DNA from: Verrucomicrobiaceae bacterium
GTDB taxonomy: Bacteria; Verrucomicrobiota; Verrucomicrobiia; Verrucomicrobiales; Verrucomicrobiaceae
DNA length: 35,015 nt
Direction of reading: 5' to 3'
NCBI GenBank assembly: GCA_027487315.1
Contig: JAIYDW010000063.1
Location: forward strand, 1-35,015
The translations under genes and the position numbers were made by a program. Numbering within the stretch: the first letter of the stretch is position 1; each line of letters opens with the position of its first letter. The notes below the pieces were generated by a model, which saw nothing but the letters and a program-made list of their open reading frames with translations, had not been told where the DNA came from and did no database searches. Below are positions 1 through 35,015 of the stretch, in pieces.

Positions 1-172
1 ACCCTTGCCGTCTCCGAACTTTCTGCGCTAATCTCGAAATGTTGTGATTCACCCTAATAGTCACAAAAACCGTCTGATACCTTTGGTTCTACCACAGGCA
101 AAAAAAAGACGGATCGAAGGGCGCCTCGTCAAATGGCCCCAATTCACCCCCAACCACACACCCAACCTACCC

Positions 173-1735
173 ATGGATCGCGACGACCACACCTCGCTCA
201 CTGCCCCTACCCTGCTACCCTCCAAGGAGTTCTCCCGCTCCGCCGCCCTCAAAGCCGGTGACCAGCGATCTCGATCCAAAAAAGGTGCCCCCAGCACCGC
301 CCCCGCCACCCCCAAACGCGTCGGCGTCCGCACCTTCATCCTCGACACCAACGTCCTCCTCCACGACCCCGCCTGCATCAACCGCTTCGCCGAACACGAC
401 GTCTGCATCCCCGTCGACGTCCTCAGCGAACTCGACAAATTCAAAAACGAAATGACCGAACGCGGCGCCAACGCACGCGAGGTCCACCGCACCCTCATGA
501 AGGTCTTCACCGCTGACGGCTCCGTCACCGGTGGCGTCAAAACCCCCGGTGGTGGCACCGTCCGCGTCGTCGTCTATGACCCCGCCCGCGCCACCAAGAC
601 CCCCAGCGTCATGGAGTTCGGCCGCGTCTTCCCAGGCCTCGACAAAATGGATCACCGCATCCTCGCCTGCACCCTCTGGCTTAAAGACCAGATCCGCGAC
701 GACGTCACCCTCGTCTCCAAAGACCTTAACATGCAGCTCAAAGCCCGTGCCGTCGGCATCGGCTGCGAAGACTACCTCCATGACAAAGTCGAACCCCGCG
801 AAGTCTCCAACATGGACATCGCCCGCATCGACGTCAGCCCCCACGAACTCCAGCGCTTCGCCAGCTCAGGTGCCCTCAAAATCGCCCCCGCACGCCTCGC
901 CGGTGTCGTCGTCAACGACTACGTCCTCCTCGTCGCCGCCGAAAAAACCTCCATGCCCGCGAAAATGAATTCGGCCGGTGAACTCGTCCGTCTCCTGCAC
1001 GTCCCCGAGTCCATCAAAGCCGGCCATGGCCGCACCATCAAACCCATGAACCTCGGCCAGGCCTGCCTGCTCGACGCCCTCCTCGACCCCGAAATCAACC
1101 TCGTCACCTGCTATGGGCAAGCCGGCACCGGCAAAACCCTCCTCGCCGTCGCCGCCGGCCTCCAGCAGGTCATGAACCACACCTACACCGGCATCACCGT
1201 CAGCCGCCCCATCGTCGCCATGGGCCAGACCGTAGGCTTCCTCCCTGGCAGCCTCCAGGACAAAATGCGCCCCTGGCTCCAGCCCATCTACGACGCCCTG
1301 GATCTCCTCATGCGCCCTATCTCCAAGGCCACCCCCACCGCCAATCAAAAACAACAGCGCCCCCGCAATCTCGCCGAAACCGACTCCAGCGTGGCCGCCG
1401 CCCCCTACGACCACCTTATCCAGGCCGGCATCATCGAAATCGAAGCCCTCTGCTACATCCGCGGCCGCTCGATCCCCGACCGCTTCTTCGTCCTCGATGA
1501 AGCCCAACAACTCACCCCCCTGGAGGCCAAAACCGTCGTCACCCGCATGTCCCGCGGCTCCAAACTCGTCCTCGTCGGCGACCCCGCGCAAATCGACAAC
1601 CCCTACGTCGACAGCCGCTCCAACGGCCTCGTCTACACCCGCCAGCGCATGCGCGGCCAACCCTTCGCCGCCCACGTCCCCCTCGTCAAAGGCGAACGCA
1701 GCGCCCTCGCCGAAGCCGGCGCCCGCCTCCTCTAA
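173..1735 (+). CDS. PIN-PhoH family ATPase (PhoH2/YlaK type)
   Basis: This 520-residue protein joins an N-terminal PIN nuclease-like domain to a C-terminal PhoH P-loop ATPase, the PhoH2-type architecture linked in other bacteria to RNA unwinding and cleavage. The PIN domain starts near residue 54 with FILDTN, which carries the first metal-binding Asp, and runs to about residue 200. The ATPase has Walker A GQAGTGKT near residue 315 and Walker B FVLDEAQ near residue 438, followed by the usual GDPAQID segment. The open frame extends upstream to a GTG at 44, but those 43 residues look unlike a domain, so I chose the ATG at 173. It is followed by transaldolase on the same strand after a hairpin. 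The coding strand is very rich in C-ending codons. Family assignment is firm; the RNA-processing role is inferred from relatives. Confidence 0.9.
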   Translation: MDRDDHTSLTAPTLLPSKEFSRSAALKAGDQRSRSKKGAPSTAPATPKRVGVRTFILDTNVLLHDPACINRFAEHDVCIPVDVLSELDKFKNEMTERGANAREVHRTLMKVFTADGSVTGGVKTPGGGTVRVVVYDPARATKTPSVMEFGRVFPGLDKMDHRILACTLWLKDQIRDDVTLVSKDLNMQLKARAVGIGCEDYLHDKVEPREVSNMDIARIDVSPHELQRFASSGALKIAPARLAGVVVNDYVLLVAAEKTSMPAKMNSAGELVRLLHVPESIKAGHGRTIKPMNLGQACLLDALLDPEINLVTCYGQAGTGKTLLAVAAGLQQVMNHTYTGITVSRPIVAMGQTVGFLPGSLQDKMRPWLQPIYDALDLLMRPISKATPTANQKQQRPRNLAETDSSVAAAPYDHLIQAGIIEIEALCYIRGRSIPDRFFVLDEAQQLTPLEAKTVVTRMSRGSKLVLVGDPAQIDNPYVDSRSNGLVYTRQRMRGQPFAAHVPLVKGERSALAEAGARLL

Positions 1736-1760
1736 GTGTGCGCCTCAGCCCAGCCACGAC

Positions 1761-1792
1761 CCCTACCTGGCACCTTCGCCGGGTAGGGTTCC
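1761..1792 (+). terminator. Hairpin after the PhoH gene, possible terminator
   Basis: An 11-bp stem (1761-1771 with 1778-1788, one G-T wobble) closes a six-base loop 25 bp after the PhoH stop codon. Only two T residues follow directly, so it is a weak intrinsic terminator at best and could be a structural element in the transaldolase leader. Confidence 0.4.
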
Positions 1793-1864
1793 AGCTTGCG
1801 TCCCCGCCTTCCAGGCCTACCTTGGCGGCCCCTATCGACACGTAAAAACTGACCCCATTCGATC

Positions 1865-2821
1865 ATGAACCAACTCGACCAGCTCAAACAACACACCACC
1901 GTCGTAGCCGACACCGGCGATTTCGAGGCCATGAAGGCCTACAAACCCCAGGACGCCACCACCAACCCCTCCCTCATCCTCCAGGCCTCCCAAAAAGACG
2001 AATACAAGTCCCTCGTCGAAAAAGCCGTCGCCGACAGCAAAGCCGCCGCCCTCTCCGGACCCGCCCTCCTCGACGGCGTCATGGACCGCCTCGTCGTCGC
2101 CTTCGGCCTCGAAATCCTCAAAATCGTCCCCGGCCGCGTCTCCACCGAAGTCGACGCCCGCCTCTCCTTCGACACCCAGGCCAACATCGACAAAGCCCGC
2201 CACCTCATCGGCATGTACGAAAAAGCCGGCATCTCCCGCGAGCGCATCCTCATCAAAATCGCCTCCACCTGGGAAGGCATCAAAGCTGCAGAAGTCCTGC
2301 AAAAAGAAGGCATCAACTGCAACTTGACCCTCCTCTTCTCCCTCGCCCAGGCCGTCGCCTGCGCCGAAGGCGGCATCAAACTGATCTCCCCTTTTGTCGG
2401 TCGCATCCTCGACTGGTACAAAAAAAGCACCGGCAAGGACTACACCGCCACCGAAGATCCCGGCGTCCAGTCCGTCACCCAAATCTACAACTACTACAAA
2501 CACTTCGGCTACACCACCGAGGTCATGGGCGCCAGCTTCCGTAACAAAGGCGAGATCACCGAACTCACCGGCTGCGACCTCCTCACCATCTCCCCCGGTC
2601 TCCTCGGCGAACTCCAAGCCGCCGATGAACCACTCGTCAAAAAGCTCAACGCCGACAACGCCAAATCCCTCAAGATCGACCGCATCGGCAGCGACGAAAA
2701 AACCTTCCGCTGGCTCCTCAACGAAGACGCCATGGCCACCGAGAAAACCTCCGAAGGCATCCGCAACTTCGCCAAGGACATCGTCAAACTCGAAACCCTC
2801 GTCACCAGCCTCATCGGCTAA
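1865..2821 (+). CDS. tal: Transaldolase (TalB type)
   Basis: Transaldolase moves a dihydroxyacetone unit between sugar phosphates in the non-oxidative pentose phosphate pathway, in the cytoplasm. The 318-residue length matches the classical TalA/TalB subfamily (about 317 residues) and not the short fructose-6-phosphate-aldolase-like forms. Recognisable family segments are the N-terminal VVADTGDF, the substrate-region DATTNPSLI, the Schiff-base lysine segment ILIKIASTW near residue 130, and CNLTLLFS just after it. The start at 1865 gives the standard N-terminus, MNQLDQLK. No clear Shine-Dalgarno sequence precedes it. A strong intrinsic terminator follows, so the gene appears to end a transcription unit. 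Confidence in the function is high. Confidence 0.96.
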
Positions 2822-2848
2822 TCGAGTTCCCAAAGGCACCCCTCCTCA

Positions 2849-2884
2849 CCCCCGCTCCGGCAACGCCCGGACCGGGGGTTTTTC
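2849..2884 (+). terminator. Rho-independent terminator of transaldolase
   Basis: A GC-rich stem of 12 bp with one mismatch (2849-2860 with 2867-2878) is followed at once by a T run at 2879-2883. It lies 27 bp after the tal stop codon. It is oriented for the plus strand only: the minus-strand side has no T run. Its end touches the stop codon of the convergent beta-lactamase-fold gene. Confidence 0.8.
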
Positions 2885-4022
2885 ATGCCCTCGACGCATG
2901 CCCGCCCAGCACCTCATACAGCGCCCGCGAATCCGACTTGGGGTCCGTCTCATGCAGTCGATTGCTCAAAAACACAAAGAACGCCTTCGCCCCCGGATCA
3001 AGCCACACACAGCATCCCGTAAAACCCGTGTGTCCAAAACTCCTGCCCACCGGAAACCCTCCTCGGGGTCGACTGAACTTCGTGTCCACATCCCAACCCA
3101 GCGCCCGCAGATCGACCATCCCGCTTGGCGTCGCCACACCCGTCATCAGCTTCACCGTCTCAGCCTGCAGCACCCTGTTACCCTCCAACTCACCTCCGGA
3201 AATCACGCACCGCGCATAGCGCGCCACGTCCCGCACCGTGCTGAACAATCCCGCATGCCCCGCCACCCCACGCATCCGTCGTGCCGTCGGATCGTGCACC
3301 ACCCCGCACAGCATCACCCCGGCCTCATCCTTCTCCGTTGCCGCAATCCGTTCGCGCAAGGCCCCATCCGGCCGGAACCCCGTATCCTCCATCCCCAGCG
3401 GCCCAAACACCACCTCCTTGGCAAACACCTCCAACCCCTTCCCCGTCACCTGCTGCACCAACTCCCCCAGCAAAATAAAATTGATGTCACTGTAACAGAA
3501 CACCTCGTCTGGCATCTCCAAAGGCACCGTCTCACACGCCATTCGAATCCCCTCATCATACCCGCTCCAAGCCTCCACTCGCGACAACCCAGGCCTCAAC
3601 CCCGATGTATGCGTCAGCAACTGGCGCACCGTGATCCGCTCCCTCCCCTCCCCCTCAAACGCAGGCACGTAAGCCTTCACCGGCGCCGTCAAATCCACCG
3701 CCCCAGCCTCCACCAATCGCATCACACATGGCGTCGTCGCCACCACCTTGGTCAGCGATGCCACATCAAAAATCGTCCCCTCCTCCACAAGCCGCCTCTC
3801 CTCCTCCGGCACCTTCACCGCCTCCCCGCTCACTCCATTCACCGACACTCCGCCCCGCTCCACCCACCACGCCCCACCCGCGATCACCCGATCCCTCACC
3901 GCCTGATCCACCGCCGCCTGAAAGGCCTCCACCGATTCCTCCCTCAACTCCTCTCCCCTGCCAACAGTCGCCGCAGCCATGCCCAAACTTGTCATCATGA
4001 ATCGCCTCCGTGTGAAAACCAT
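2883..4022 (-). CDS. Beta-lactamase-fold serine hydrolase (class C / esterase-like)
   Basis: A serine hydrolase of the class C beta-lactamase/PBP4*/esterase superfamily, about 379 residues. The nucleophile motif SLTK (residues about 89-92) is present. The usual YxN motif appears as YSD (about 177-179), and HTG (about 331-333) takes the place of KTG; an AGHAGLFST segment lies between them. The N-terminus carries an RRRF motif and a hydrophobic stretch, suggesting Tat or Sec export. The start is the ATG at 4022; the longer reading opens with TTG. It lies 48 bp after the HDAC-family gene on the same strand and may be cotranscribed with it. The HTG and YSD variants favour an esterase or peptidase over true beta-lactam resistance. 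The substrate cannot be told from sequence. Confidence 0.85.
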   Translation of the reverse strand: MVFTRRRFMMTSLGMAAATVGRGEELREESVEAFQAAVDQAVRDRVIAGGAWWVERGGVSVNGVSGEAVKVPEEERRLVEEGTIFDVASLTKVVATTPCVMRLVEAGAVDLTAPVKAYVPAFEGEGRERITVRQLLTHTSGLRPGLSRVEAWSGYDEGIRMACETVPLEMPDEVFCYSDINFILLGELVQQVTGKGLEVFAKEVVFGPLGMEDTGFRPDGALRERIAATEKDEAGVMLCGVVHDPTARRMRGVAGHAGLFSTVRDVARYARCVISGGELEGNRVLQAETVKLMTGVATPSGMVDLRALGWDVDTKFSRPRGGFPVGRSFGHTGFTGCCVWLDPGAKAFFVFLSNRLHETDPKSDSRALYEVLGGHASRA

Positions 4023-4070
4023 TCTCAAATGCTACCTCCCACCCGATCAATTCACAAGCTCTCGCTGCGC

Positions 4071-5012
4071 TCAGTCTCCCAGCAACGCCCGCACATGACT
4101 GCAAACACCTGCCGCCAGACCTCCCAAATGATACCCTCCCTCCATCACTGACACCACCCGCCCCCCGCAGGTCTCAGCCGCAAACTGCATCAGCCACTTC
4201 GTCAGCACCGCAAAGTCCGCATCCGTCAGCTGAAACTGCCCCAAAGGATCTCCCACCCGCGAATCAAACCCCGCCGAAATCATCACCAAATCCGGCTTGA
4301 ACGCCTGCGCCGCCGGAATCAACCCATCCAAAAACGCCGCGCCAATCTCCTTCATCCCCGACCCCGCAGGCAGTGGCCGGTTCATGATGCAGCCCTTTCC
4401 CTTCCCCTCACCCACCTCCTCCGCATGCCCCGTGTAAGGATACCACGGACTCTGGTGCACACTGAAAAAAAGCACACTCCCATCCTCATTGAAAATGTCC
4501 TGCGTCCCGTTCCCGTGATGCACATCCCAGTCCACGATCATGACCTTCTCAGCCCCATGCTTCCGCTGCGCATGCCTCGCCCCGATCGCCACATTGTTGA
4601 ACAAACAAAAGCCCATCCCCTGCGCCGGCCTCGCATGATGCCCGGGCGGCCGCACCGCGCAAAACGCCCGATTCAATCGCCCGCTCATCACCCCGTCCAC
4701 CGCATTCAAAACCCCGCCCACCGCCCGCGACGCGATCTCGAACGACTTCCCACACACCTGCGTGTCCCCGGTGCTCAGCTCCGTCGCCCCGGATCTCACA
4801 TCACGCTCAGCCGTCTCCAGATACGCCTTCGTGTGACACAATAAAAGCTCATCCCGCTCCGCCATCCGCTGTTGGATCGGCAGCGTCTCATCCGCGATCC
4901 CCTGCTTCGTCAATGCTTCCATCACCGCGCGATATCGCGCCGCCGATTCAGGATGCCCCTCACCCGTGTCGTGACCCCGAAACACATCATCCAAAAGAAG
5001 ACCCGTATTCAT
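4071..5012 (-). CDS. Histone deacetylase superfamily protein (AcuC/HDAC-like)
   Basis: A 313-residue zinc-dependent deacetylase of the arginase/HDAC fold. The catalytic pair is in RPPGHHA (about 121-127). Expected zinc ligands are Asp163 and His165 in [10 protein letters not shown] and Asp250 in SAGFD. The transition-state tyrosine is in EGGYH (about 291-295). All key residues are intact. Bacterial members remove acetyl groups from protein lysines (AcuC acting on acetyl-CoA synthetase), from polyamines, or from other amides; the sequence does not separate these. I chose the ATG at 5012 because the longer reading starts with TTG. It is downstream of and co-oriented with a Pat-like acetyltransferase fusion, across a 170-bp palindrome, which makes a protein-deacetylase role attractive but unproven. 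Confidence 0.92.
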
Positions 5013-5062
5013 AATCGCATTACAATTCAAAACGCCTCAAGAACAAGCAAACAACACACCTC

Positions 5063-5232
5063 ATCCTAGAAACGGAAATGGAAAGGGATGAAGATGGCGT
5101 CGTGCTTGGTTCCACAAGGCTTCCCGGTTCGCAGCGGTTGCATCGATAAAGTGATGCCACCCGAGAAGCGGGGAGCCTTGTGGGGCCAATGACGGCGGCA
5201 GATTCGCCCTCAGCCATTTCCGTTTTTAGGAT
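5063..5232. repeat. 170-bp imperfect palindrome (large hairpin element)
   Basis: The whole gap between the Pat-like gene and the HDAC gene folds on itself. The outer arms, 5063-5081 and 5214-5232, match at 18 of 19 positions. An inner block, 5112-5125 with 5171-5184, is also nearly perfect, and the segments between them align without gaps at lower identity. The centre, near 5147, is closed by GCATC and GATGC. Six arm mismatches (for example at 5069, 5109-5110 and 5121) would be G-U wobbles in plus-strand RNA but A-C mismatches in minus-strand RNA. The outer edge touches the stop codon of the upstream gene. It could be a MITE or REP-like element, or a structured RNA. No second copy was seen in the window. 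Confidence 0.8.
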
Positions 5233-7979
5233 CATGGCTTCAGCCACATCTCGGCCCGGCAATCCCCCTCCCCATCCGTCCTCACCTTAAACCCGACCTT
5301 CTTCGCCACTGCCCGCATCCCCGCATTGTCAGCCAAAATGTCCGCACTGATCCGCTCCAGCCCCTCATCCCTCCCAATCTGCACCAGCCGCCGCAGCAAC
5401 TCCGTCCCCAGCCCATGTCGCTGCCACGCATCGCTGATCGTCATGGAAAACTCCGCCGCCTTCAGTCCTGGCACCTGACTCAAACGACCCACCGCAATGA
5501 TCTCAGGCTCACCCTCCTCACCCATCCGCTCCACCACCAGCGCCATCTCACGATCGTAATCAATGAAGCAAATCCGCGCCAGCCGGTCATGCGCGATGCG
5601 CTGATCCAACTGCATCGCATTGAAGTAACGGTAATACACACTGCGCTCCGATAGCGTGTAATGAAACGCCCGAATCATCGGCTCATCCTCAGGCCGGATC
5701 GGCCGAATCACCGCCTGGGATCCATCCCGCAGGCTCCAGTCTGTCACATACTGCGCCGGATACGATCGAATCACCGACTTCGGCAAAAACTCGTCCGCCA
5801 CCTCCGCCCCATGCAACACCATCCGCACATCCAAAGCCACAAACCCCTCCGGCGTCGCCAACAGCGGATTGATGTCGATCTCCTTGATCCGCCGTTGCTC
5901 GACAACCAATTCGCTAAACCTCACCAGCAACTGCTCCAGCGCCTCCATATCCATCGGCGCCCGCCCGCGCACCCCGCGCAGCGCCGTCGCAATCTTCGTC
6001 CGCTCAATCATCCGCCGCGCCAGCGTGCCATTCAACGGTGGCAACCCCAGCACCGTGTCCTTGAAAACCTCTACCAACTGCCCGCCCGCCCCAAACAACA
6101 ACACCGGCCCGAACGACACATCGTCTTTGCTCCCCAAAATCAATTCATACCCATGCCCGCCCGTCACCATCGGCTCCACCGTTACTCCCAAAAAATCCCC
6201 CTCAGCCACCCCACTCCGAATCGCCTCAAACGCCCGCCGCACCGCCGCCTCATCCCCCAGGTTCAGCTTCACCCCTCCCACCTCCGTCTTGTGCGTCACG
6301 GTCGCCGAATGCAGCTTCAACACCACCGGCCAACCCATTCCCTCCGCCCGCTCCACGGCCTCCTCCACCGTCACCGCCAAAGCTACTGGCAGACTCGGAA
6401 TGTCATAAGCCGCCAGCACCGCATTGCAGTCCATCTTCGACAAAAAAGTCACCCCCGCATCACACGCCGCCCGAATCATCCGACCCGCCTCCGCACGCCG
6501 ATCCCGACTCGCCTTCGCACCCGCCGCCAAAGTCGGCGTCTCATACAGCGCCCGCAAATTCTGCCCATGCTGCCACATCAGCGCAAACACCCGCGCCGCC
6601 ATGTCCGGATAATCAAAGGTCGGTATCTTCGCCTCATTTAAGAGCACCCTCCCCACCGCCACATCATCCGCTCCCATCCAGCTCGTCAGCACCGGCTTCC
6701 CCGTCCCCTTCGCCGCCACGACCACAGCCCGCGCACACGCCGTCGGATCCGTCATCGCCTGCGGCGTCAAAATCACCAACACCCCATCGCAACCCTCATC
6801 CTCGATCGCCGCCCGCACCGCCACCTCATACCGATCCGCCCCCGCATCCCCCAACACATCGATCGGATTCCCATGACTCCACAAAGGCGGCAGCACCCCA
6901 TCCAGCAACGCCCGCGTCGCCTCCGACAACTCCGCCAACACCCCGCCACTGCTCACCAGCAAATCCGTCGCCAGCGCCCCCGGCCCGCCCGCATTCGTCA
7001 CAATCGAAAGCCTCGGTCCCCTCGGACGCGGCTGCTTGCTCAGCACCTCCGCCATGTCGAACAACTCCCCAATCGTCTCCACCCGCAGCACCCCCGCCCG
7101 CCGAAACGCCACCTCCAATACCGCGTCACTCCCCGTCAGCGCCCCCGTGTGCGACGCCGCCGCCCGCGCCGCCTCCTCCGTTCGCCCCACCTTGATCACA
7201 ATCACCGGCTTCGTCTGCGCCACCTCCCGCGCCGCCGACAAAAACGCCCGCGGATCCCCGATCGACTCCATGTAAATCAAAATGCTCTGCGTCATCGGAT
7301 CATCCCCCAGCCAGTCAATCAAATCTCCCCACCCCACATCCGACATCGACCCGATCGATACAAACGCACTGAACCCCACCTGATCCCGGCGGCTCCAATC
7401 CAAAATCGCACTGCACAACGCCCCGCTCTGACTGATGAACGCCACCCTCCCCGGCGCCGCCTCATGCGCCGCAAAAGTCGCGTTCAACTTCACATGCGGC
7501 GACATCACCCCCAGGCAATTCGGCCCCACAATCCGCATCCCTCCCCGCGCCGCCTCCCGCATCACCTCCCGCTCCAGCGCCACTCCCGCTTCCCCGATCT
7601 CCTTGAACCCTGCCGAAACAATGATCGCCGCGGTCACTCCCGCCTCCACACACTCTTTCACCGCCCCCAACACCGACCCCGCTGGCGTCGCGATCACCGC
7701 CAAATCCACCCGCTCCGGCACCTTCAGGATCGACGAAAAAACCTCCCCTCCCATCACCGTCTTCTGAAACGGATTCACCCAAAACACCTTCCCTCCGAAC
7801 GACCCCAGATTCCGCGCCAAAGCCGCCCCCACACTGTGCTCGCGCTCACTCGCCCCGATCAATGCCACCACCCTCGGCCGGAAAATCGCATCCATCGGAT
7901 TCCTCCGCATCTGATTCAAAATGTCATGCGACCGCTCCGCCCGCGCGACTTTGTCTTGGGTAACTTGGGCCTTTTTCAT
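5232..7979 (-). CDS. Acyl-CoA synthetase (NDP-forming)/GNAT acetyltransferase fusion, Pat-like
   Basis: A 915-residue protein with the architecture of the bacterial lysine acetyltransferase Pat/PatZ/YfiQ. It has a CoA-binding Rossmann domain (about 29-123, with VVALIGAS), two succinyl-CoA-synthetase-like domains (about 150-440), an ATP-grasp domain (about 508-728, with THKTEVGGV) and a C-terminal GNAT domain (about 755-915, with the acetyl-CoA loop RHGLGT). Pat enzymes acetylate acetyl-CoA synthetase and other proteins on lysine. The SHTGALTG segment keeps a histidine (His277) at the position I recall as the phospho-histidine of active ADP-forming acetyl-CoA synthetases, so the synthetase half may be active. 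I chose the ATG at 7979 over a TTG at 8000. It lies 90 bp after the VF530-type gene and upstream of the HDAC gene. Confidence 0.92.
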
Positions 7980-8068
7980 ATCCGCCAATAAGGCCCCCAA
8001 GCTAGCCTGCCCTTCACCTCAATACACCACCAATCTTGGTCAAAACCTCTCCTCCCAGAGCACCCCGC

Positions 8069-16625: not shown

Positions 16626-16746
16626 CGATCCAGAATTCCAAATGGCCGAAGACCAGTAAAAAGCCGCAAGGCGTGAAGCAGAAAATGACGACTGAGTGAA
16701 TACTTCGCCCCCGGTGACGTCAGACTGGAGTCCCAACTCCACGCCC

Positions 16747-19362
16747 ATGCACACCTGCCTCCGCTCCCTTTCGATTTTCGCCGCCCTTCTCTCCCTGACC
16801 AGTTGTGACAAGCCGGGTCCGCTCACTGACCGTTCTCCTTTGCCCGTTAACGAGTCGTCGGAGACGGAAAATCAACTCGTCGAGGCACGCGATGCCTTGC
16901 AGCGCCAGGCCTTGGAGATCGAGACTAAGACCGCTCTGATGGACAAACAACTCGCCGAGATGGAGCAGGCGCTGAAGGATCGGGAGAATGACGAGCTGCG
17001 GGGTTCTTTGGAGGCTTTGAAACAACAAAACCAAGCCCTTCGAGCGAAGGCCGAAACGGTGCGGCGCCAGAGCGATGCGATCACGCGGCGGATCGCCACC
17101 ACCACTCCTCCGGCGAGTGTGACGCCGTCAACTTTGACCCCACGTGATCACTCGGTCTTTTATGAGAAGCTCGCCCCCCACGGTCGCTGGATGGAGGTGA
17201 AGGGCTATGGCTACTGCTGGAGGCCACGCGTCACGACGGTGGGCTGGCGCCCGTATGGGGATGGCTGCTGGGTGTGGTCTTCCATGGGCTGGACTTGGCA
17301 GTCGAACGAGCCGTTTGGCTGGGCCACTTACCACTATGGCCGCTGGATGAATCTCTCGCGTCACGGCTGGGTCTGGGTGCCCGGCAACGAATGGGCACCT
17401 GCCTGGGTGTCATGGCGTCAGAGCCGTGATCACATCGGCTGGGCGCCGCTTCCTCCAGACCGTGGCTCCAGCCGCGCGGTGTATCGCGATTGTGACACGC
17501 GGTATAACCTTGGCCCCTCCAGCTACACCTTCATCAACACGACGCATTTCGTGCGGCCGAGCTACACCACGGTGTTTGCTCCCGTGACACAAAACATCAC
17601 GATTTTTCAGAGCAGTGTGAACGTCACCCAAATCGTCCGTTGTGATGACCGCGACCACTGCGGCCTGTTCAAGCACCACGGCGGGCCGTCTCTTGAACAG
17701 ATGGAAAGCGTCTGCGCCCGTCCTGTGCCCCAGATTCAGGTGCAGTCTGTGTCAGCCAGCCAAATCCGGCCAACACCCGACGGATACCGACCCGGAGGCT
17801 CTCTGGCCAATCCCGTATTGGTCGAGCTTCCGGTAGCGAGAACCGGAGTGCCAGTCAGACTTCCCCCCTTGGCCGAGCGCATTGAGGAGCCAAGGCTTGT
17901 GGACGCTTTTGAGGGCGTGCCGCAGCGCGAGGCGGTGGAGATTCGTGAGATGATCTCCGCCGAGGGGCAAACGGCTGCCGTTCAGCGGCCCGTGGCGGTG
18001 ATTGGACCCCAAGCGCCAACCTTCACCGCTCCAACTGCGGAACCGCCTGCTCCTTGGGTCAATGCGCCAGCGGTCGAGTCAGTCGCTACCGAGACTGTGC
18101 GTCCAATCGTGGCCAATGAGGAACAACCGATGATCCAGCCTGCGCCCACCGTCGCCGCAACCGACGTCACGACCGCCGCACCCACGGTTCAGCCCGACGT
18201 CGCCGCACCAGCAATGCCGCCTGTGGCCGCTGCGACCGATCCGGAAGAAACCACACCTCCGACCCCCGTCGTGATGCCTGCGGAGCCGACGGTTCCAGTT
18301 CCAACCGCTGTGGCTGAAAGCGCGCCGCCTGCCGTCCCACCTGTTTCAGGCGACATTCCCGCCCCTCAACCACCCGCGCAGCAAGCCCAGCCGACCGCAC
18401 CCGCAATGGCTGAGTCACTCGTTCCCCAACAGGAAGAACAACTCGCCCAGCAACGCGCTGCGGAAGCAAGAATGGCGCTCGAGCAGGCGGCAGCCGCAGA
18501 GCAACGCGCCATGTCAGAAAAAGCGGAAGCGGATCGAGCCATGGCCGCTGCCGAGGCTGAACGCGCCCAACTGCAAGCAAATGCAGAGGCCATGCAGCAA
18601 CGTCAGCAGGAAGAACTGGCCGCCCAACAACGTGCCATGGCCGAAGAGAGGGCCGCCGCTGAGGCCGAACGCGCTCGTCAAGAGGCCGAAGCTGTCGCGA
18701 TGCAACGGCAGCAGGAAGACGCCCTGCGCCAGCAACAAGAAATGGCGCAACGCGAAGCCGAAGAACAAGCCCGCCGCGCCGCCGAAGAACAAATGCGCCA
18801 ACAACAAGAAATGGCCCAACGTCAGGCCGAAGAGCAAGCCCGCCGCGCCGCCGAGGAGCAAATGCGCCAACAACAAGAAATGGCCCAACGTCAAGCCGAG
18901 GAACAAGCCCGCCGCGCCGCCGAAGAACAAATGCGCCAGCAACAGGAAATGGCCCAACGTCAAGCCGAGGAACAAGCCCGCCGTGCCGCCGAAGAACAAA
19001 TGCGCCAGGAACAGGAAATGGCACAACGCCAGGCCGAAGAACAAGCCCGCCGCGCCGCCGAAGAACAAATGCGCCAGCAGCAGGAAATGGCCCAACGTCA
19101 GGCCGAAGAACAAGCCCGCCGCGCCGCCGAAGAACAAATGCGCCAGCAACAAGAAATGGCCCAACGTCAAGCCGAGGAACAAGCCCGCCGGGCCGCCGAG
19201 GAACAAATGCGCCAACAACAAGAAATGGCCCAACGTCAGGCCGAAGAGCAGGCCCGCCGCGCCGCCGAAGAGCAAATGCGCCAGCAACAGGAAATGGCCC
19301 AACGTCAGGCCGAAGAACAAGCCCGCCGCGCCGCCGAAGAAGCCGCTCGCAGGCAACCTTAG
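16747..19362 (+). CDS. DUF6600-type Trp/Tyr-rich lipoprotein with long repetitive coiled coil
   Basis: An 871-residue predicted lipoprotein. The signal peptide ends in LSLTSC, giving a lipidated Cys20; this decided the ATG at 16747 over the one at 16696. A short coiled coil (about 30-90) comes first. A tryptophan- and glycine-rich domain (about 140-240) follows, with the repeated pattern WRPYGDGCW, GWATYHYGRW and WVPGNEWAPAWVSW ending in GWAPLPP, typical of the DUF6600 group as I recall it. A long Pro/Ala/Thr/Val-rich region (about 370-560) leads to a Gln/Glu/Arg/Ala coiled coil to the C-terminus, built largely of nine 23-residue repeats. The coiled coil could span the periplasm. It is divergent from the sulfatase gene. 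Function is unknown. Confidence 0.85.
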   Translation: MHTCLRSLSIFAALLSLTSCDKPGPLTDRSPLPVNESSETENQLVEARDALQRQALEIETKTALMDKQLAEMEQALKDRENDELRGSLEALKQQNQALRAKAETVRRQSDAITRRIATTTPPASVTPSTLTPRDHSVFYEKLAPHGRWMEVKGYGYCWRPRVTTVGWRPYGDGCWVWSSMGWTWQSNEPFGWATYHYGRWMNLSRHGWVWVPGNEWAPAWVSWRQSRDHIGWAPLPPDRGSSRAVYRDCDTRYNLGPSSYTFINTTHFVRPSYTTVFAPVTQNITIFQSSVNVTQIVRCDDRDHCGLFKHHGGPSLEQMESVCARPVPQIQVQSVSASQIRPTPDGYRPGGSLANPVLVELPVARTGVPVRLPPLAERIEEPRLVDAFEGVPQREAVEIREMISAEGQTAAVQRPVAVIGPQAPTFTAPTAEPPAPWVNAPAVESVATETVRPIVANEEQPMIQPAPTVAATDVTTAAPTVQPDVAAPAMPPVAAATDPEETTPPTPVVMPAEPTVPVPTAVAESAPPAVPPVSGDIPAPQPPAQQAQPTAPAMAESLVPQQEEQLAQQRAAEARMALEQAAAAEQRAMSEKAEADRAMAAAEAERAQLQANAEAMQQRQQEELAAQQRAMAEERAAAEAERARQEAEAVAMQRQQEDALRQQQEMAQREAEEQARRAAEEQMRQQQEMAQRQAEEQARRAAEEQMRQQQEMAQRQAEEQARRAAEEQMRQQQEMAQRQAEEQARRAAEEQMRQEQEMAQRQAEEQARRAAEEQMRQQQEMAQRQAEEQARRAAEEQMRQQQEMAQRQAEEQARRAAEEQMRQQQEMAQRQAEEQARRAAEEQMRQQQEMAQRQAEEQARRAAEEAARRQP
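18718..19338 (+). repeat. Nine in-frame 69-bp tandem repeats
   Basis: A 69-bp (23-codon) unit is repeated nine times inside the lipoprotein gene. The first copy is diverged (it encodes EDALRQ in place of EEQMRQ) and the other eight are nearly identical in protein, with synonymous changes scattered among them. The unit encodes EEQMRQQQEMAQ followed by RQAEEQARRAA, a Glu/Arg/Gln coiled-coil heptad pattern. Copy number probably varies between strains. The repeats also create long antisense open frames that are artefacts. Confidence 0.95.
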
Positions 19363-30501: not shown

Positions 30502-31893
30502 TTAATAGCGAATTTCGACACCGATGGTGAACAGGTCGATGGCTTGGTCGGCCACTGGGGTTTCGCCCTTCTGATATTCTGCGGTGATTCCAGCATAGTC
30601 GTTGAGCCAAACAGAAAGGGATGCCTTCAAGTAATCGGAATAACCACCTTGGCCGGAGAAGGTGTCCATAAAACGATGTGAGAAAGAGAGAATGATGGGC
30701 AGTTTTTTCGCGCTATAGTCGTAAAGTCCAATGTCGAAGGCGGTTTCCACGCCGTACCGAGTCCAGTCATCATTTAACTGCCTCTGTGTAAACGGACTCG
30801 TTTGGCGGACTTCGCTGTAATCCAGGAGTCCGGTTGCACGGATCCTCCAATCGAGGTTTCGGTTTCCGATCGTTGCAAGGGGCCTGAAGTTACCAATCTG
30901 GCCCAGCCAACTGTCTCCGCGATATTCGAACCCGGCGGTGATGCCCATGATCTGTGCGTCAAAATGAGAATCGGTGTGCAAATAGGGTTCCAGTTGCGAA
31001 ATGATCTGTCCGCGTTTCGGCATCCAATCTTGCTGAATCACTGCCGCTATAGGTAGGCCGAATCGCAGTTCATCCACACTTGCCTGCCCGATTTTCTGAG
31101 GGTTTTCGTTCTTCCAGGATGTGGCAAAGCCAGCGTGCAATAGGAGGGAATCTGTTGGATTGGGCTCATAGATGCCATGGAAAGGCCAGATCAGAGCACC
31201 TTCCGTGCTCCATGCTCCATTCCCCCCGAGCAAATAATTGTTCGAGTAACCGATACGAGCCCCTTTGATGGACGTGAGGCTCTGGGTGTCCTGCCCATTT
31301 TCCATTTCTACCCAAGTGTCCATGATCGGCCACGTCGAGCGTCGGAGGCGCAAAGGTCCCCAGCTCTGTGTCGAACGGGGAATGGCCGATATAGATCCGT
31401 CTGAAGGCAGAGTTTCGGTATACGCTTTCTCTTCCTTCATCACACTGCCGGGGGTGCCTGCAAATTTTTTCAGATAGGAACCTGTCTCCGATTTGTACTC
31501 CACAATTTTTTGCACAATTGGCGCGGTAACCATCGGGATTTTCTGCCACTTCTCTTTCTGTTCATATTTTTGCAAAGGACTTGGGTTCACGGGCAATGCA
31601 CTCTCCAATTCTTCCACCGTGTAAGGTGCTTCATGGCCTGTCCGGCGGCTCAAGAACCACAAATGTTCTTCGACAGCGAGAGCCTTGCTGTCGAATGTTG
31701 GTTGTCCGAATTTCGGCGCGATCTTGCTCAAGGGAACATCAAAACGGTAGACCAAATACTCGACTGTTTCCTCATAGGTGAGACTCAAACCTTGGCGGGC
31801 AAAGTCTTTTGCCTTGAAGGTTTCGTCCGCGAGAGAAGTCCCGATAACTGCGAGGAAAATGCTAGAGCGAATAAAAAGTTGAGAACTAGACAT
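30502..31893 (-). CDS. Predicted outer-membrane beta-barrel protein
   Basis: A 463-residue exported protein with a signal peptide of about 22 residues (MSSSQLFIRSSIFLAVIG as its core). The N-terminal part (about 25-160) is mixed helical with YEETVEYLVYRF and EEHLWFLSRR. From about 200 the sequence alternates polar and aromatic/hydrophobic residues (for example AQIMGITAGFEYRG and ASLSVWLNDYAGITAEY) and ends in FTIGVEIRY, with a C-terminal aromatic residue as in outer-membrane barrels. No specific transporter or porin family is recognised. It starts 29 bp after the gene for a small lysine-tailed protein on the same strand. GC content is lower than in the left half of the window. Confidence 0.72.
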   Translation of the reverse strand: MSSSQLFIRSSIFLAVIGTSLADETFKAKDFARQGLSLTYEETVEYLVYRFDVPLSKIAPKFGQPTFDSKALAVEEHLWFLSRRTGHEAPYTVEELESALPVNPSPLQKYEQKEKWQKIPMVTAPIVQKIVEYKSETGSYLKKFAGTPGSVMKEEKAYTETLPSDGSISAIPRSTQSWGPLRLRRSTWPIMDTWVEMENGQDTQSLTSIKGARIGYSNNYLLGGNGAWSTEGALIWPFHGIYEPNPTDSLLLHAGFATSWKNENPQKIGQASVDELRFGLPIAAVIQQDWMPKRGQIISQLEPYLHTDSHFDAQIMGITAGFEYRGDSWLGQIGNFRPLATIGNRNLDWRIRATGLLDYSEVRQTSPFTQRQLNDDWTRYGVETAFDIGLYDYSAKKLPIILSFSHRFMDTFSGQGGYSDYLKASLSVWLNDYAGITAEYQKGETPVADQAIDLFTIGVEIRY

Positions 31894-31921: not shown

Positions 31922-32377
31922 TTAGTTTGGGGGACTCTTGTGCCAGGTGAGAATGGAAATCCAGATCGCTGTTGTAAACATACTGAAGGTATTCGCCGCG
32001 CTGAGTGCCGACACAGACACCTGTGATTCTACATCGTTGAAATAGCGACCATTGATTAATCCACGCATTGCTTGTCGAACTTGAGGACCAAACATGTGAG
32101 GAGGAAATTGGGTAGTTGGCGTGTTTGGGGGCTGGAGAGGATCGAATCCCACTTCCCAAATGATCATGGCGTGCGCACGATCTCGAACATCGTTTTTTGT
32201 GACCACGATATTTCCATTCGTGCCGATGTGACTTGTTTGATGTTTCAAAACGGCGATTTGTTCCGGTGTTCCCGTAAGAACGTTATTTGGAAGAACGCCA
32301 GCAGCCTTTTTCGCGACAGCCTTTTTCGCGACAGCCTTTTTTGCGACAGCCTTTTTTGCGACAGCTTTTTTTGCCAT
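31922..32377 (-). CDS. Small protein with histone-H1-like KAVAK tail
   Basis: A 151-residue protein whose first 27 residues are five copies of the pentapeptide AKKAV, a strongly basic, alanine-rich tail of the kind found in histone-H1-like and other nucleic-acid-binding proteins. The other 120 residues carry no family I recognise; they include TPEQIAVLKHQ and a hydrophobic last segment (about 130-147, with FTTAIWISILTW) that could insert into a membrane. The ATG at 32377 starts exactly at the tail; an upstream start at 32446 would add 23 residues. The outer-membrane protein gene follows after 28 bp. Nucleic-acid or anionic-surface binding by the tail is inferred from composition only. Confidence 0.7.
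   Translation of the reverse strand: MAKKAVAKKAVAKKAVAKKAVAKKAAGVLPNNVLTGTPEQIAVLKHQTSHIGTNGNIVVTKNDVRDRAHAMIIWEVGFDPLQPPNTPTTQFPPHMFGPQVRQAMRGLINGRYFNDVESQVSVSALSAANTFSMFTTAIWISILTWHKSPPN
32299..32376 (-). repeat. 15-bp tandem repeats encoding AKKAV
   Basis: Five 15-bp units make up the start of the lysine-tailed gene. On the plus strand each reads as GCGACAGCC followed by a T-rich run. The copies are almost identical, so copy number could change by slippage, altering tail length in whole five-residue steps without loss of frame. Confidence 0.85.
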
Positions 32378-32446
32378 AGTATTTTGGGGTTTATTTTTGA
32401 AAGGTATTATGGATGATTTACTTTGTTTTGGGCGGTTCAAGCTCAT

Positions 32447-32964: not shown

Positions 32965-34782
32965 TCAAGTCGCTTTTGTGCCCGGGCGGACGAACGCAAA
33001 TTCTTCAAGTTCTTTAATCAACGCCTTGAGCTGTTCAGGTACTTCGCCTGCCTTCATCTGATCAATTATTGCAGTTGGGCTCACAGAGATTCCATACCGC
33101 GTCTCTAGGTTCTGGTTGATTTTGGCAAGGGCGTCCTTCCCTGGAAGTAAGTGGTATCGGCTCTGCTCGCTTTGCCATAAACCTTCAAATTCAGCAAGTG
33201 CAGTCTCAGTGAAATGCGATTCGTCAAAGCCTGGTCTGTGGAGTTTTCCAAATCGCTTTGCGGAAGTGATGAATTGTGATGCGATGTAGTTCTTTTTTTC
33301 GTCGGCGTAAGCATCCAATAATTCTTGAGCACACTCAACGTAGACAACTTTTTTTCCCGACCGTTTTGACCGATCTGCAAGTCTATGCGCAGCAGCACGA
33401 TCAATTGCTTTAGGACACAGGAGAAAATTCTCAATTTCTTTACACCCGTGAACGCTCACAAAACGGCAAAATTTGCGGCACTCCTCGGAGATAGAATCAC
33501 ATTCGAGTTGAGATCGAAAATCTCGGTCGAAAATCGCGGTAGCCGCGATCTCTCCTCCTAAGGTAGTTTCGATCCCTTTCTTGAGGGTGCGAATTCGCTC
33601 AGGGTTAAACCCTTCTACGGGAATCACAGCAAAATCTGACCGGCTCGAAACCTTATTGAACTCTAGCTTCCTTGCAATTTTCCCAATGATTTGAAAGTCG
33701 TTGCCTTCCACAAAAATTGCACGGCGTGTTTTAGCAAGTTGGGTGAGGATCGGGTTCAGATTTGATCCAAGAAGAAGGAAAATCTCAGATAACTCAGAAG
33801 GCTGTTTAATTCGCCGTGCGCTCTTCCGCTTTTTGTTCACCAAAACAATATCGTCTGCTTCGGCTTCGGTAATAATTTCGGTGGAATGTGTGGCGATGAT
33901 AATGTCGGGACCGAGATTTCGGAGCAATACAAGCAGTTGCCTCTGTAAATCTGCGTGAAGATAAATGTCGGGTTCATCTATCAAGAACAGAGCTTTGTCT
34001 TTCGATTGAACCAAATGCGTCAACATTTGGCACCAAACCTGAAATCCAAAGCCTGCCCAGAAAATCTCGCGCGGTATCCGTTCCTCAGGGCAAAACATGT
34101 GGAGTCGCGGTTTGCCGCTCGAATAGTCCACTTTGGGAGGTTCGATGTCCATTCCAGGCCACGACTCGTTGAGCATTTGCCTGAATTCAGGGAAGCGGTC
34201 ACGATAATGGTGCCAAATGTTGCGGAAATTCCTGGCTGCGGTGTAATTGAAGAGGGCCAGTCTAGCAGCTTCTTCTTGGTACAACAGTTCATCATGGTCG
34301 ACAGGTCCTAGAATTGGAACAAAGCCGACTGGGCAATTAAACAGCTGCTTAAACGACTTGGTACTTCGTGGAGGTGCACCACCGGTCTCAGGGATCAGAT
34401 AACAGCGTTCACGCTCGGGGAAAAAGAGAACTAACTTATTGCCGTTAGATAGCGTGAATTTGACAGACGCGGGGGTCGTGTTGTCGTAATTGTAAAATAG
34501 ATTTTCTTGAGCAACTGAAATACCATTTAGATCTATGGAATAGCCAAAAGTTTCCCCCCGTGGTCCAGGAATTAGTTCAGGATTTCTCGAACTAGCTTTT
34601 CGGTGGGCCGCAGCCAGAATTCGGAAAGCTGCTAATATTGTAGATTTGCCGGCATTGTTTGGGCCGACAAGGATATTAAATGAACGCAGATGAAGGGTGA
34701 AACGCTCAAAGGCCTTGAACAGGGTGAAATCAACTCGGACAAAATGGTGCAGCTCTTCTGGACCATTATTGTTAGCTTTCAT
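32965..34782 (-). CDS. ABC-type ATPase/TOPRIM fusion, candidate anti-phage protein (PARIS- or OLD-like)
   Basis: A 605-residue protein joining an ABC/SMC-type ATPase to a C-terminal TOPRIM/DUF4435-like domain. The ATPase has Walker A GPNNAGKS (about 40-47), Walker B LFLIDEP (about 265-271) followed by DIYLH, and the switch histidine in ATHSTE (about 297-302). The second domain has the TOPRIM glutamate in FVEGND (about 357-362), the DxD pair in FDRDF (about 418-422) and CKEIENFLL (about 447-455), typical of DUF4435 proteins. PARIS systems have the ATPase AriA and the DUF4435 protein AriB, and fused forms are known; OLD nucleases have the same order. I chose the ATG at 34782 over the one at 34824. 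No partner gene is visible. Confidence 0.82.
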   Translation of the reverse strand: MKANNNGPEELHHFVRVDFTLFKAFERFTLHLRSFNILVGPNNAGKSTILAAFRILAAAHRKASSRNPELIPGPRGETFGYSIDLNGISVAQENLFYNYDNTTPASVKFTLSNGNKLVLFFPERERCYLIPETGGAPPRSTKSFKQLFNCPVGFVPILGPVDHDELLYQEEAARLALFNYTAARNFRNIWHHYRDRFPEFRQMLNESWPGMDIEPPKVDYSSGKPRLHMFCPEERIPREIFWAGFGFQVWCQMLTHLVQSKDKALFLIDEPDIYLHADLQRQLLVLLRNLGPDIIIATHSTEIITEAEADDIVLVNKKRKSARRIKQPSELSEIFLLLGSNLNPILTQLAKTRRAIFVEGNDFQIIGKIARKLEFNKVSSRSDFAVIPVEGFNPERIRTLKKGIETTLGGEIAATAIFDRDFRSQLECDSISEECRKFCRFVSVHGCKEIENFLLCPKAIDRAAAHRLADRSKRSGKKVVYVECAQELLDAYADEKKNYIASQFITSAKRFGKLHRPGFDESHFTETALAEFEGLWQSEQSRYHLLPGKDALAKINQNLETRYGISVSPTAIIDQMKAGEVPEQLKALIKELEEFAFVRPGTKAT

Positions 34783-34859: not shown

Positions 34860-35015
34860 CTACTGGCAGGCTTCACACTCCCCGCCGTTGCGCATCGCCT
34901 CGATGGAGCAGGCGAGTTTTTCTTCGGCGGTGAATTTGGCGGCGGCGGCGACGGAGGCGGCGTGGGTGCCGACGATGCCGCGCTTCTCTTTCTCGACTTC
35001 GCTGGTGGCTTTTTC
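34860..35015 (-). CDS. C-terminus of a probable ribonucleotide reductase alpha subunit (partial)
   Basis: The last 51 codons of a minus-strand gene that enters from beyond the right edge. The sequence ends ACSIEAMRN, then GGECEACQ and a stop. A C-terminal CxxC after a flexible, alanine-rich stretch matches the swinging redox tail of class I ribonucleotide reductase large subunits, which reduces the active site for deoxynucleotide synthesis. The GC content is high again, unlike the neighbouring ATPase gene. The call rests on a short tail and memory of the family, so another cysteine-tailed protein is possible. Confidence 0.5.
   Translation of the reverse strand, partial: EKATSEVEKEKRGIVGTHAASVAAAAKFTAEEKLACSIEAMRNGGECEACQ

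What the first reader, a model, noticed from the sequence alone, without database searches (positions are those of the whole stretch)
32965..34782. Single-gene ATPase-TOPRIM fusion in low-GC DNA: a possible fused PARIS or OLD-type defence gene
Seen: Walker A, Walker B, switch histidine, TOPRIM Glu and DxD, and a DUF4435-like CKEIENFLL, all in one 605-residue frame. Known: PARIS pairs an ABC ATPase (AriA) with a DUF4435 protein (AriB), sometimes fused, and Gabija and OLD proteins share the ATPase-TOPRIM order. Inference: with no helicase or second gene beside it, this is either a stand-alone fused form or an uncharacterised branch. Its low-GC setting beside a probable housekeeping gene fits a defence locus.
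Basis: partly seen in the sequence, partly recalled or inferred. Interest (0 to 1): 0.65.

Follow-up and report, generated by a model that had tools for sequence, protein, structure and literature searches.

The report
Stand-alone ATPase-TOPRIM probable phage-defence gene
One gene, moved between distant bacteria, makes an ATP-driven sensor joined to a nucleic-acid-cutting domain; it resembles known anti-phage proteins (PARIS, OLD, Gabija) but forms its own branch, so it is probably an untested single-gene phage-defence system.

Summary
A 605-residue minus-strand gene (32965-34782) encodes an ABC ATPase followed by a TOPRIM domain. All named motifs are conserved in 43 full-length sequences (homologues 38-67% identical to the window protein) from at least eight bacterial phyla. 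The predicted structure is confident (pLDDT 89; TOPRIM half alone 95). The TOPRIM half best matches AriB of PARIS (Z 10.5), then class 2 OLD proteins (8.3); the ATPase half matches PtuA- and AriA-type ATPases. It is a stand-alone gene: 61 loci share no neighbouring gene. It is patchy (1 of 4 genomes of its genus, no full-length copy in the other family genomes sampled) and lower in GC than its flanks in 39 of 40 loci. It sits 77 bases behind nrdA, where two congeners carry other genes. This is the profile of a mobile defence gene. It is not simply a fused PARIS: controls score 364-635 bits on PADLOC's AriAB models, this protein 64. A tree places the family, with a sister group of similar single-chain proteins, outside PARIS/AriAB (AU p 0.003) and OLD/GajA (p 1e-68). 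Best reading: an uncharacterised branch of the OLD/PARIS superfamily acting as a one-gene abortive-infection nuclease. Substrate (tRNA favoured over DNA) and trigger are inferred, not shown.

The parts
32965..34782 (-). the gene: 605-aa single-chain ABC ATPase-TOPRIM protein
   Evidence: open frame; 43 full-length sequences aligned; model pLDDT 89
33763..34782 (-). N-terminal ABC ATPase half, residues 1-340
   Evidence: AAA_21 2.9e-24; PtuA Z 21.9, AriA Z 17.3
34639..34665 (-). Walker A GPNNAGKST, residues 40-48
   Evidence: G40, N42, N43, G45, K46, S47, T48 invariant in 43
33955..33990 (-). Walker B and following LFLIDEPDIYLH, residues 265-276
   Evidence: D269, E270, P271, Y274, L275, H276 invariant
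33880..33894 (-). switch histidine ATHST, residues 297-301
   Evidence: A297, T298, H299, S300 invariant
32968..33762 (-). C-terminal TOPRIM half with helical tail, residues 341-605
   Evidence: domain model pLDDT 94.8; AriB Z 10.5 and class 2 OLD Z 8.3
33694..33714 (-). TOPRIM motif 1 FVEGNDF, residues 357-363 (catalytic Glu E359)
   Evidence: F357, E359 invariant
33520..33528 (-). TOPRIM DxD (DRD), residues 419-421
   Evidence: D419 invariant, D421 in 90% or more
33418..33441 (-). KEIENFLL, residues 448-455, DUF4435/AriB-like third acidic motif
   Evidence: E449, E451 invariant, N452 in 90% or more; same motif type in 6 of 6 AriB and in the sister group
33127..33144 (-). PGKDAL, residues 547-552, C-terminal GK motif, similar to AriB GKD
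   Evidence: G548, K549 in 90% or more; AriB sequences
34860..35015 (-). 3' end of nrdA (ribonucleotide reductase large chain), 77 bases upstream of the gene, same strand; not part of the system, marks the insertion site
   Evidence: 100% overlap with G000 contig C165, which holds more of nrdA

Best explanation
A stand-alone, horizontally spread anti-phage gene. One protein is both sensor and effector. The N-terminal ABC ATPase half pairs with itself around ATP and holds the C-terminal TOPRIM nuclease in check. An infection signal changes the ATPase state and frees the TOPRIM active site (E359, D419/D421, E449/E451, two Mg2+), which cuts nucleic acid and stops infected cells. By analogy with AriB and P2 Old, cellular tRNA is the most likely substrate and DNA the alternative. 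It belongs to the OLD/PARIS superfamily but to a branch of its own. Shown here by computation: fold, conserved active sites, stand-alone gene, mobility, separate branch. Inferred: defence role, on/off control, substrate and trigger.
For: Active sites invariant in 43 sequences. Confident fold with the TOPRIM half nearest to AriB, then OLD, and the ATPase half nearest to PtuA and AriA. Profile comparison of the TOPRIM half with fused AAA-DUF4435 proteins gives E 1.8e-7. No shared neighbour in 61 loci. Patchy: 1 of 4 in the genus, no second full-length hit in 96 genomes of the relatives set, about 1 in 400 sampled genomes of another phylum. GC lower than flanks in 39 of 40 loci. The nrdA-downstream site holds other genes in two congeners. 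Closest sequences come from a deltaproteobacterial bin and Gallionella. Distant members sit in two predicted proviruses, one near an integrase and a transposase. Some immediate neighbours are known defence genes: Disarm-, BREX- and MADS-type, restriction-modification. Published single-gene ATPase-TOPRIM proteins stop phages: IbfA/HEC-04 (PMC12111858), YbjD (PMC13261556).
Against: No member was found with experimental data. No dedicated defence model exists for it. Class 5 OLD (Cran1) shows that a relative can serve the cell cycle instead (PMC12796447). Enrichment of defence genes around it is modest and was not tested formally. In YbjD the TOPRIM half is dispensable for the phage phenotype (PMC13261556), so a nuclease effector cannot be taken for granted.
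Confidence: 0.7

Rival explanations
1. It is a single-gene (fused) PARIS: an AriA-like ATPase joined to an AriB-like DUF4435 TOPRIM, triggered by anti-restriction proteins and cutting tRNA.
For: TOPRIM half closest to AriB by structure (Z 10.5). DUF4435 profile matches 4 of 43 members, best 5e-5. Same IEN motif as AriB. Single-gene PARIS fusions are described (PMC9122126).
Against: PADLOC AriAB scores 64 bits against 364 and 635 for fused controls. DUF4435 score below the curated cut-off in the members checked. Family plus PARIS/fused as one clade is rejected, AU p 0.003.
Confidence: 0.15
2. It is a class 1 OLD nuclease in the usual sense (like P2 Old or YbjD): isolated gene, DNA or tRNA nuclease.
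For: Isolated gene, ATPase then TOPRIM, which is the working definition of class 1 (PMC13261556). PADLOC Old model 71 bits; OLD-like TOPRIM weak in 7 of 43.
Against: P2 Old itself scores 712 bits on the Old model. Grouping the family with the OLD/GajA rows is rejected, AU p 1e-68; P2 Old and YbjD fall with the OLD rows in a second tree.
Confidence: 0.08
3. A cellular repair or cell-cycle ATPase-nuclease with no role in defence (as Cran1 in Sulfolobales).
For: Cran1 shows that OLD relatives can be recruited (PMC12796447). The gene follows nrdA, a DNA-synthesis gene, on the same strand.
Against: Absent from most relatives, foreign GC, no fixed neighbours, other genes follow nrdA in congeners.
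Confidence: 0.07

Closest known systems
PARIS (AriA/AriB, and fused AriAB)
   Same: ABC ATPase plus DUF4435-type TOPRIM; AriB is the best structural match of the TOPRIM half; shared IEN and GK motifs
   Different: one 605-aa chain; scores far below fused AriAB controls on their models; separate branch in the tree; trigger unknown
OLD class 1 (P2 Old, YbjD)
   Same: stand-alone gene, ATPase then TOPRIM
   Different: P2 Old and YbjD fall with the OLD/GajA rows; low score on the Old model; third acidic motif differs
Gabija GajA (OLD class 2)
   Same: same domain order; Foldseek's top whole-chain match (8sm3, E 7.9e-14)
   Different: no helicase family shared as a neighbour among 61 loci; grouping with the OLD/GajA rows rejected
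IbfA / HEC-04
   Same: single-gene ATPase-TOPRIM with proven anti-phage effect
   Different: 518 aa, no meaningful sequence similarity beyond Walker A; not on this branch in the tree
Sister group of 580-610-aa single-chain proteins (own genome contig C147 = L002; L067; L136 and others)
   Same: ABC ATPase plus IEN-type TOPRIM in one chain, nearest relatives by tree
   Different: distant (32% identity over part of the chain for L002); itself uncharacterised here

Membership tests
PARIS (two-gene or fused) | AAA_15/AAA_21 ATPase domain | tested here: met
   AAA_21 in 43 of 43
PARIS (two-gene or fused) | DUF4435 (PF14491) over its cut-off of 27 bits | tested here: not met
   best members seen 23.6-25.7 bits; none for the window protein. 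The fused control L092 itself has only 24.6, so the test is weak
PARIS (two-gene or fused) | match to PADLOC AriAB at the level of true members | tested here: not met
   64 bits against 364 and 635 for controls
PARIS (two-gene or fused) | falls among PARIS/AriAB in a tree | tested here: not met
   AU p 0.003; trees
PARIS (two-gene or fused) | AriB-like TOPRIM fold | tested here: met
   8ux9_A Z 10.5 over 213 residues, rmsd 7.5, top of the list
PARIS (two-gene or fused) | response to Ocr-type triggers; tRNA cleavage | not testable with these tools
   needs experiment
OLD superfamily (broad) | ABC ATPase joined to TOPRIM with E and DxD | tested here: met
OLD class 1 | isolated gene | tested here: met
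   no neighbour shared widely among 61 loci
OLD class 1 | groups with known class 1 proteins | tested here: not met
   AU p 1e-68 against grouping with the OLD rows; P2 Old and YbjD lie with those rows
Gabija | GajB helicase beside the gene | tested here: not met
   no shared neighbour family; immediate neighbours in the window are not a helicase
Retron (class 3 OLD) | reverse transcriptase and ncRNA beside the gene | tested here: not met
   no shared neighbour; no Rfam match in the window
HEC-04 / IbfA | sequence relation to IbfA | tested here: not met
   only 16 residues around Walker A align; no HEC-04 model match at 1e-20 while IbfA gives 9e-42
OLD clades U1-U11 of PMC12796447 | membership in one of the unnamed clades | not testable with these tools
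   sequence lists are in a supplement that could not be read

The most novel reading that the evidence does not exclude
The family and its sister group are a separate, unnamed class of one-gene ATPase-TOPRIM immunity, in which an AriB-type tRNase is covalently tied to its sensor and is switched on inside the chain instead of being released.
Probability: 0.35. Interest if true: 0.6.

Novelty: new variant of a known kind. Interest (0 to 1): 0.45.

Why it matters
Sensor-nuclease proteins of the OLD/PARIS type protect bacteria against phages, and PARIS releases its nuclease on triggering. A compact one-gene branch with an AriB-like nuclease would test whether release is needed at all, and which TOPRIM features go with tRNA or DNA cutting. 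It is also a defence candidate that the PADLOC models used here score only as a generic ATPase.

Tried and rejected
SMC, RecF or repair ATPase: weak matches only, mostly at the P-loop. Partner gene: all-against-all comparison of 888 genes from the loci and window gave no cluster shared by more than 4 loci besides the gene itself. Retron ncRNA or tRNA: none in the window. DUF4435 proteins in the window's phylum: none in 145 genomes. Phage records: no match; plasmids: two Cupriavidus megaplasmids, one copy decayed. Profile comparison with six AriB alone was weak (E 0.005), probably because the set is small and diverse. An attempt to use the IEN motif as a sharp mark against OLD proteins was given up: OLD proteins have an analogous IE or DIE motif, and the loose pattern also hits other sites. 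The whole-chain structure list says little about the C-terminal half, so that half was folded and searched alone. The two 2024 structural papers on PARIS are not held.

Full report
Observation. The motifs are as described. Aligned with 42 full-length homologues it shows invariant Walker A, DEP, switch histidine, TOPRIM glutamate, first DxD aspartate, and both glutamates of KEIENFLL. The most conserved block, WAGFGFQVWCQMLT (residues 242-255), stands where ABC ATPases carry their signature (inference).

Family. A search of 84,980 species genomes with this protein found 61 loci (close relatives only, so a lower bound). Hosts include Gallionella, Legionella, Mesorhizobium, Rhizobium, Nitrospira, Pirellulaceae, Bacteroidota, Acidobacteriota and one archaeal bin. 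A profile search over 398 genomes of Legionella's phylum, a sample that included two known hosts, gave one further member at 499 bits and then nothing above about 75 bits. The family is therefore rare and sharply bounded.

Stand-alone and mobile. Comparing 888 genes from these loci and the window, no other gene family is shared by more than four loci. The gene is missing from three congeners, and none of the other relatives in a set of 96 genomes has a full-length copy. Its GC lies below that of its flanks in 39 of 40 loci, by 10.8 points on average. The window ends inside the 3' end of nrdA; contig C165 of the same genome overlaps it exactly and holds more of nrdA. The gene starts 77 bases after the nrdA stop. 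In two congeners the same nrdA end is followed by other genes, so this is a variable site. Two distant members lie in predicted proviruses, one near an integrase and a transposase. Among 150 immediate neighbour proteins, matches to 123 PADLOC models were seen, including MADS, Disarm, BREX and restriction-modification; 150 more distant neighbours matched 56 models. The models overlap, so this is only a hint.

Fold. The whole protein is predicted at pLDDT 89 and the C-terminal half alone at 94.8. Whole-chain Foldseek ranks GajA and Thermus OLD first. The ATPase half matches retron and Septu PtuA (Z about 19-22) and AriA (Z 17.3, 20% identity), among SMC and Rad50 heads of similar Z. The C-terminal half alone matches AriB (8ux9 Z 10.5 over 213 residues at rmsd 7.5; 8v46 Z 9.8), then class 2 OLD C-termini (Z 8.3, 165 residues, rmsd 4.4) and GajA (Z 6.0). 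The high rmsd with AriB suggests that the helical tail is placed differently.

Is it PARIS or OLD? Profile models cannot tell: AriA, Old, GajA and AriAB all match at 64-80 bits. Controls show what real members score: AriAB 364 and 635, GajA 631, P2 Old 712, IbfA on HEC-04 141 bits. DUF4435 matches a few members just below its cut-off. By hhalign the TOPRIM half is nearest to fused AAA-DUF4435 proteins (E 1.8e-7), then OLD (2.3e-5), then AriB (0.005).

Tree. In a tree of 58 full chains the family is one clade (100/100), sister (99/99) to single-chain proteins that include one from the same genome (contig C147). That pair lies outside PARIS/fused and outside OLD/GajA. Forcing the family with PARIS/fused is rejected (p 0.003), and with OLD/GajA strongly so (p 1e-68). 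A second tree with P2 Old, YbjD and IbfA agrees. Long branches among the PARIS rows make their exact order unsure, and the groups were named after the first tree was seen, so the p values are somewhat generous.

Literature. Single-gene PARIS fusions are known (PMC9122126). OLD proteins are sorted into classes 1-5, with unnamed clades U1-U11 (PMC12796447). AriB cuts tRNA, probably with a two-metal site (PMC12409363). P2 Old is reported to cut a host tRNA, and YbjD, a solo OLD, gives phage phenotypes (PMC13261556). IbfA is a single-gene ATPase-TOPRIM that aborts phage infection and is related to HEC-04 (PMC12111858). So the kind is known and the branch appears undescribed; it may be one of U1-U11, which could not be checked.

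Mechanism. Most likely the ATPase half senses infection and restrains the tethered TOPRIM nuclease, which then cuts tRNA, or DNA, by a two-metal mechanism. Fold and active sites are computed results. The sensing, the restraint, the substrate and the defence role are inferred from relatives and from distribution.

Verdict. A real, conserved, mobile one-gene ATPase-TOPRIM family; a probable anti-phage system; a new variant of a known kind.

Noticed in passing
34860-35015 (and G000 C165, G003 C266, G001 C357): The site just behind nrdA carries a different gene set in each of three congeners (this gene; two short genes that look like DUF4160/DUF2442 by eye; a 266-aa protein of four-helix-bundle type by eye), so it may be an insertion hotspot.
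   Followed up: partly
31922-32446, repeat at 32302-32385: A 174-aa minus-strand protein carries repeated AVAKK units made by 15-base direct repeats, weakly like histone H1-like HC2.
   Followed up: no
30502-31893: A 463-aa minus-strand protein without any Pfam match, looks like an outer-membrane barrel by eye, also in lower-GC DNA (about 50%); it may belong to the same foreign stretch.
   Followed up: no
L002 (G000 contig C147): The same genome holds a second single-chain ATPase-TOPRIM protein (609 aa, 32% identity over part) from the sister group.
   Followed up: partly
L134-L139: A well-conserved 580-aa sister subfamily (RKNIENYLLVP, DGKRILF) in single-chain form in other genomes; the one tested (L136) has no plasmid match and no high-scoring PADLOC model.
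   Followed up: partly
L141:1306-2862: IbfA, a proven single-gene ATPase-TOPRIM defence protein, is found in 390 of 5426 complete E. coli genomes, almost always on plasmids.
   Followed up: no
1-8000: Strongly negative GC skew (-0.3 to -0.47) over the first 8 kb, ending near 9 kb.
   Followed up: no
18001-19000: Local AT skew of 0.46 inside a long plus-strand frame (16696-19362), out of line with the rest of the window.
   Followed up: no
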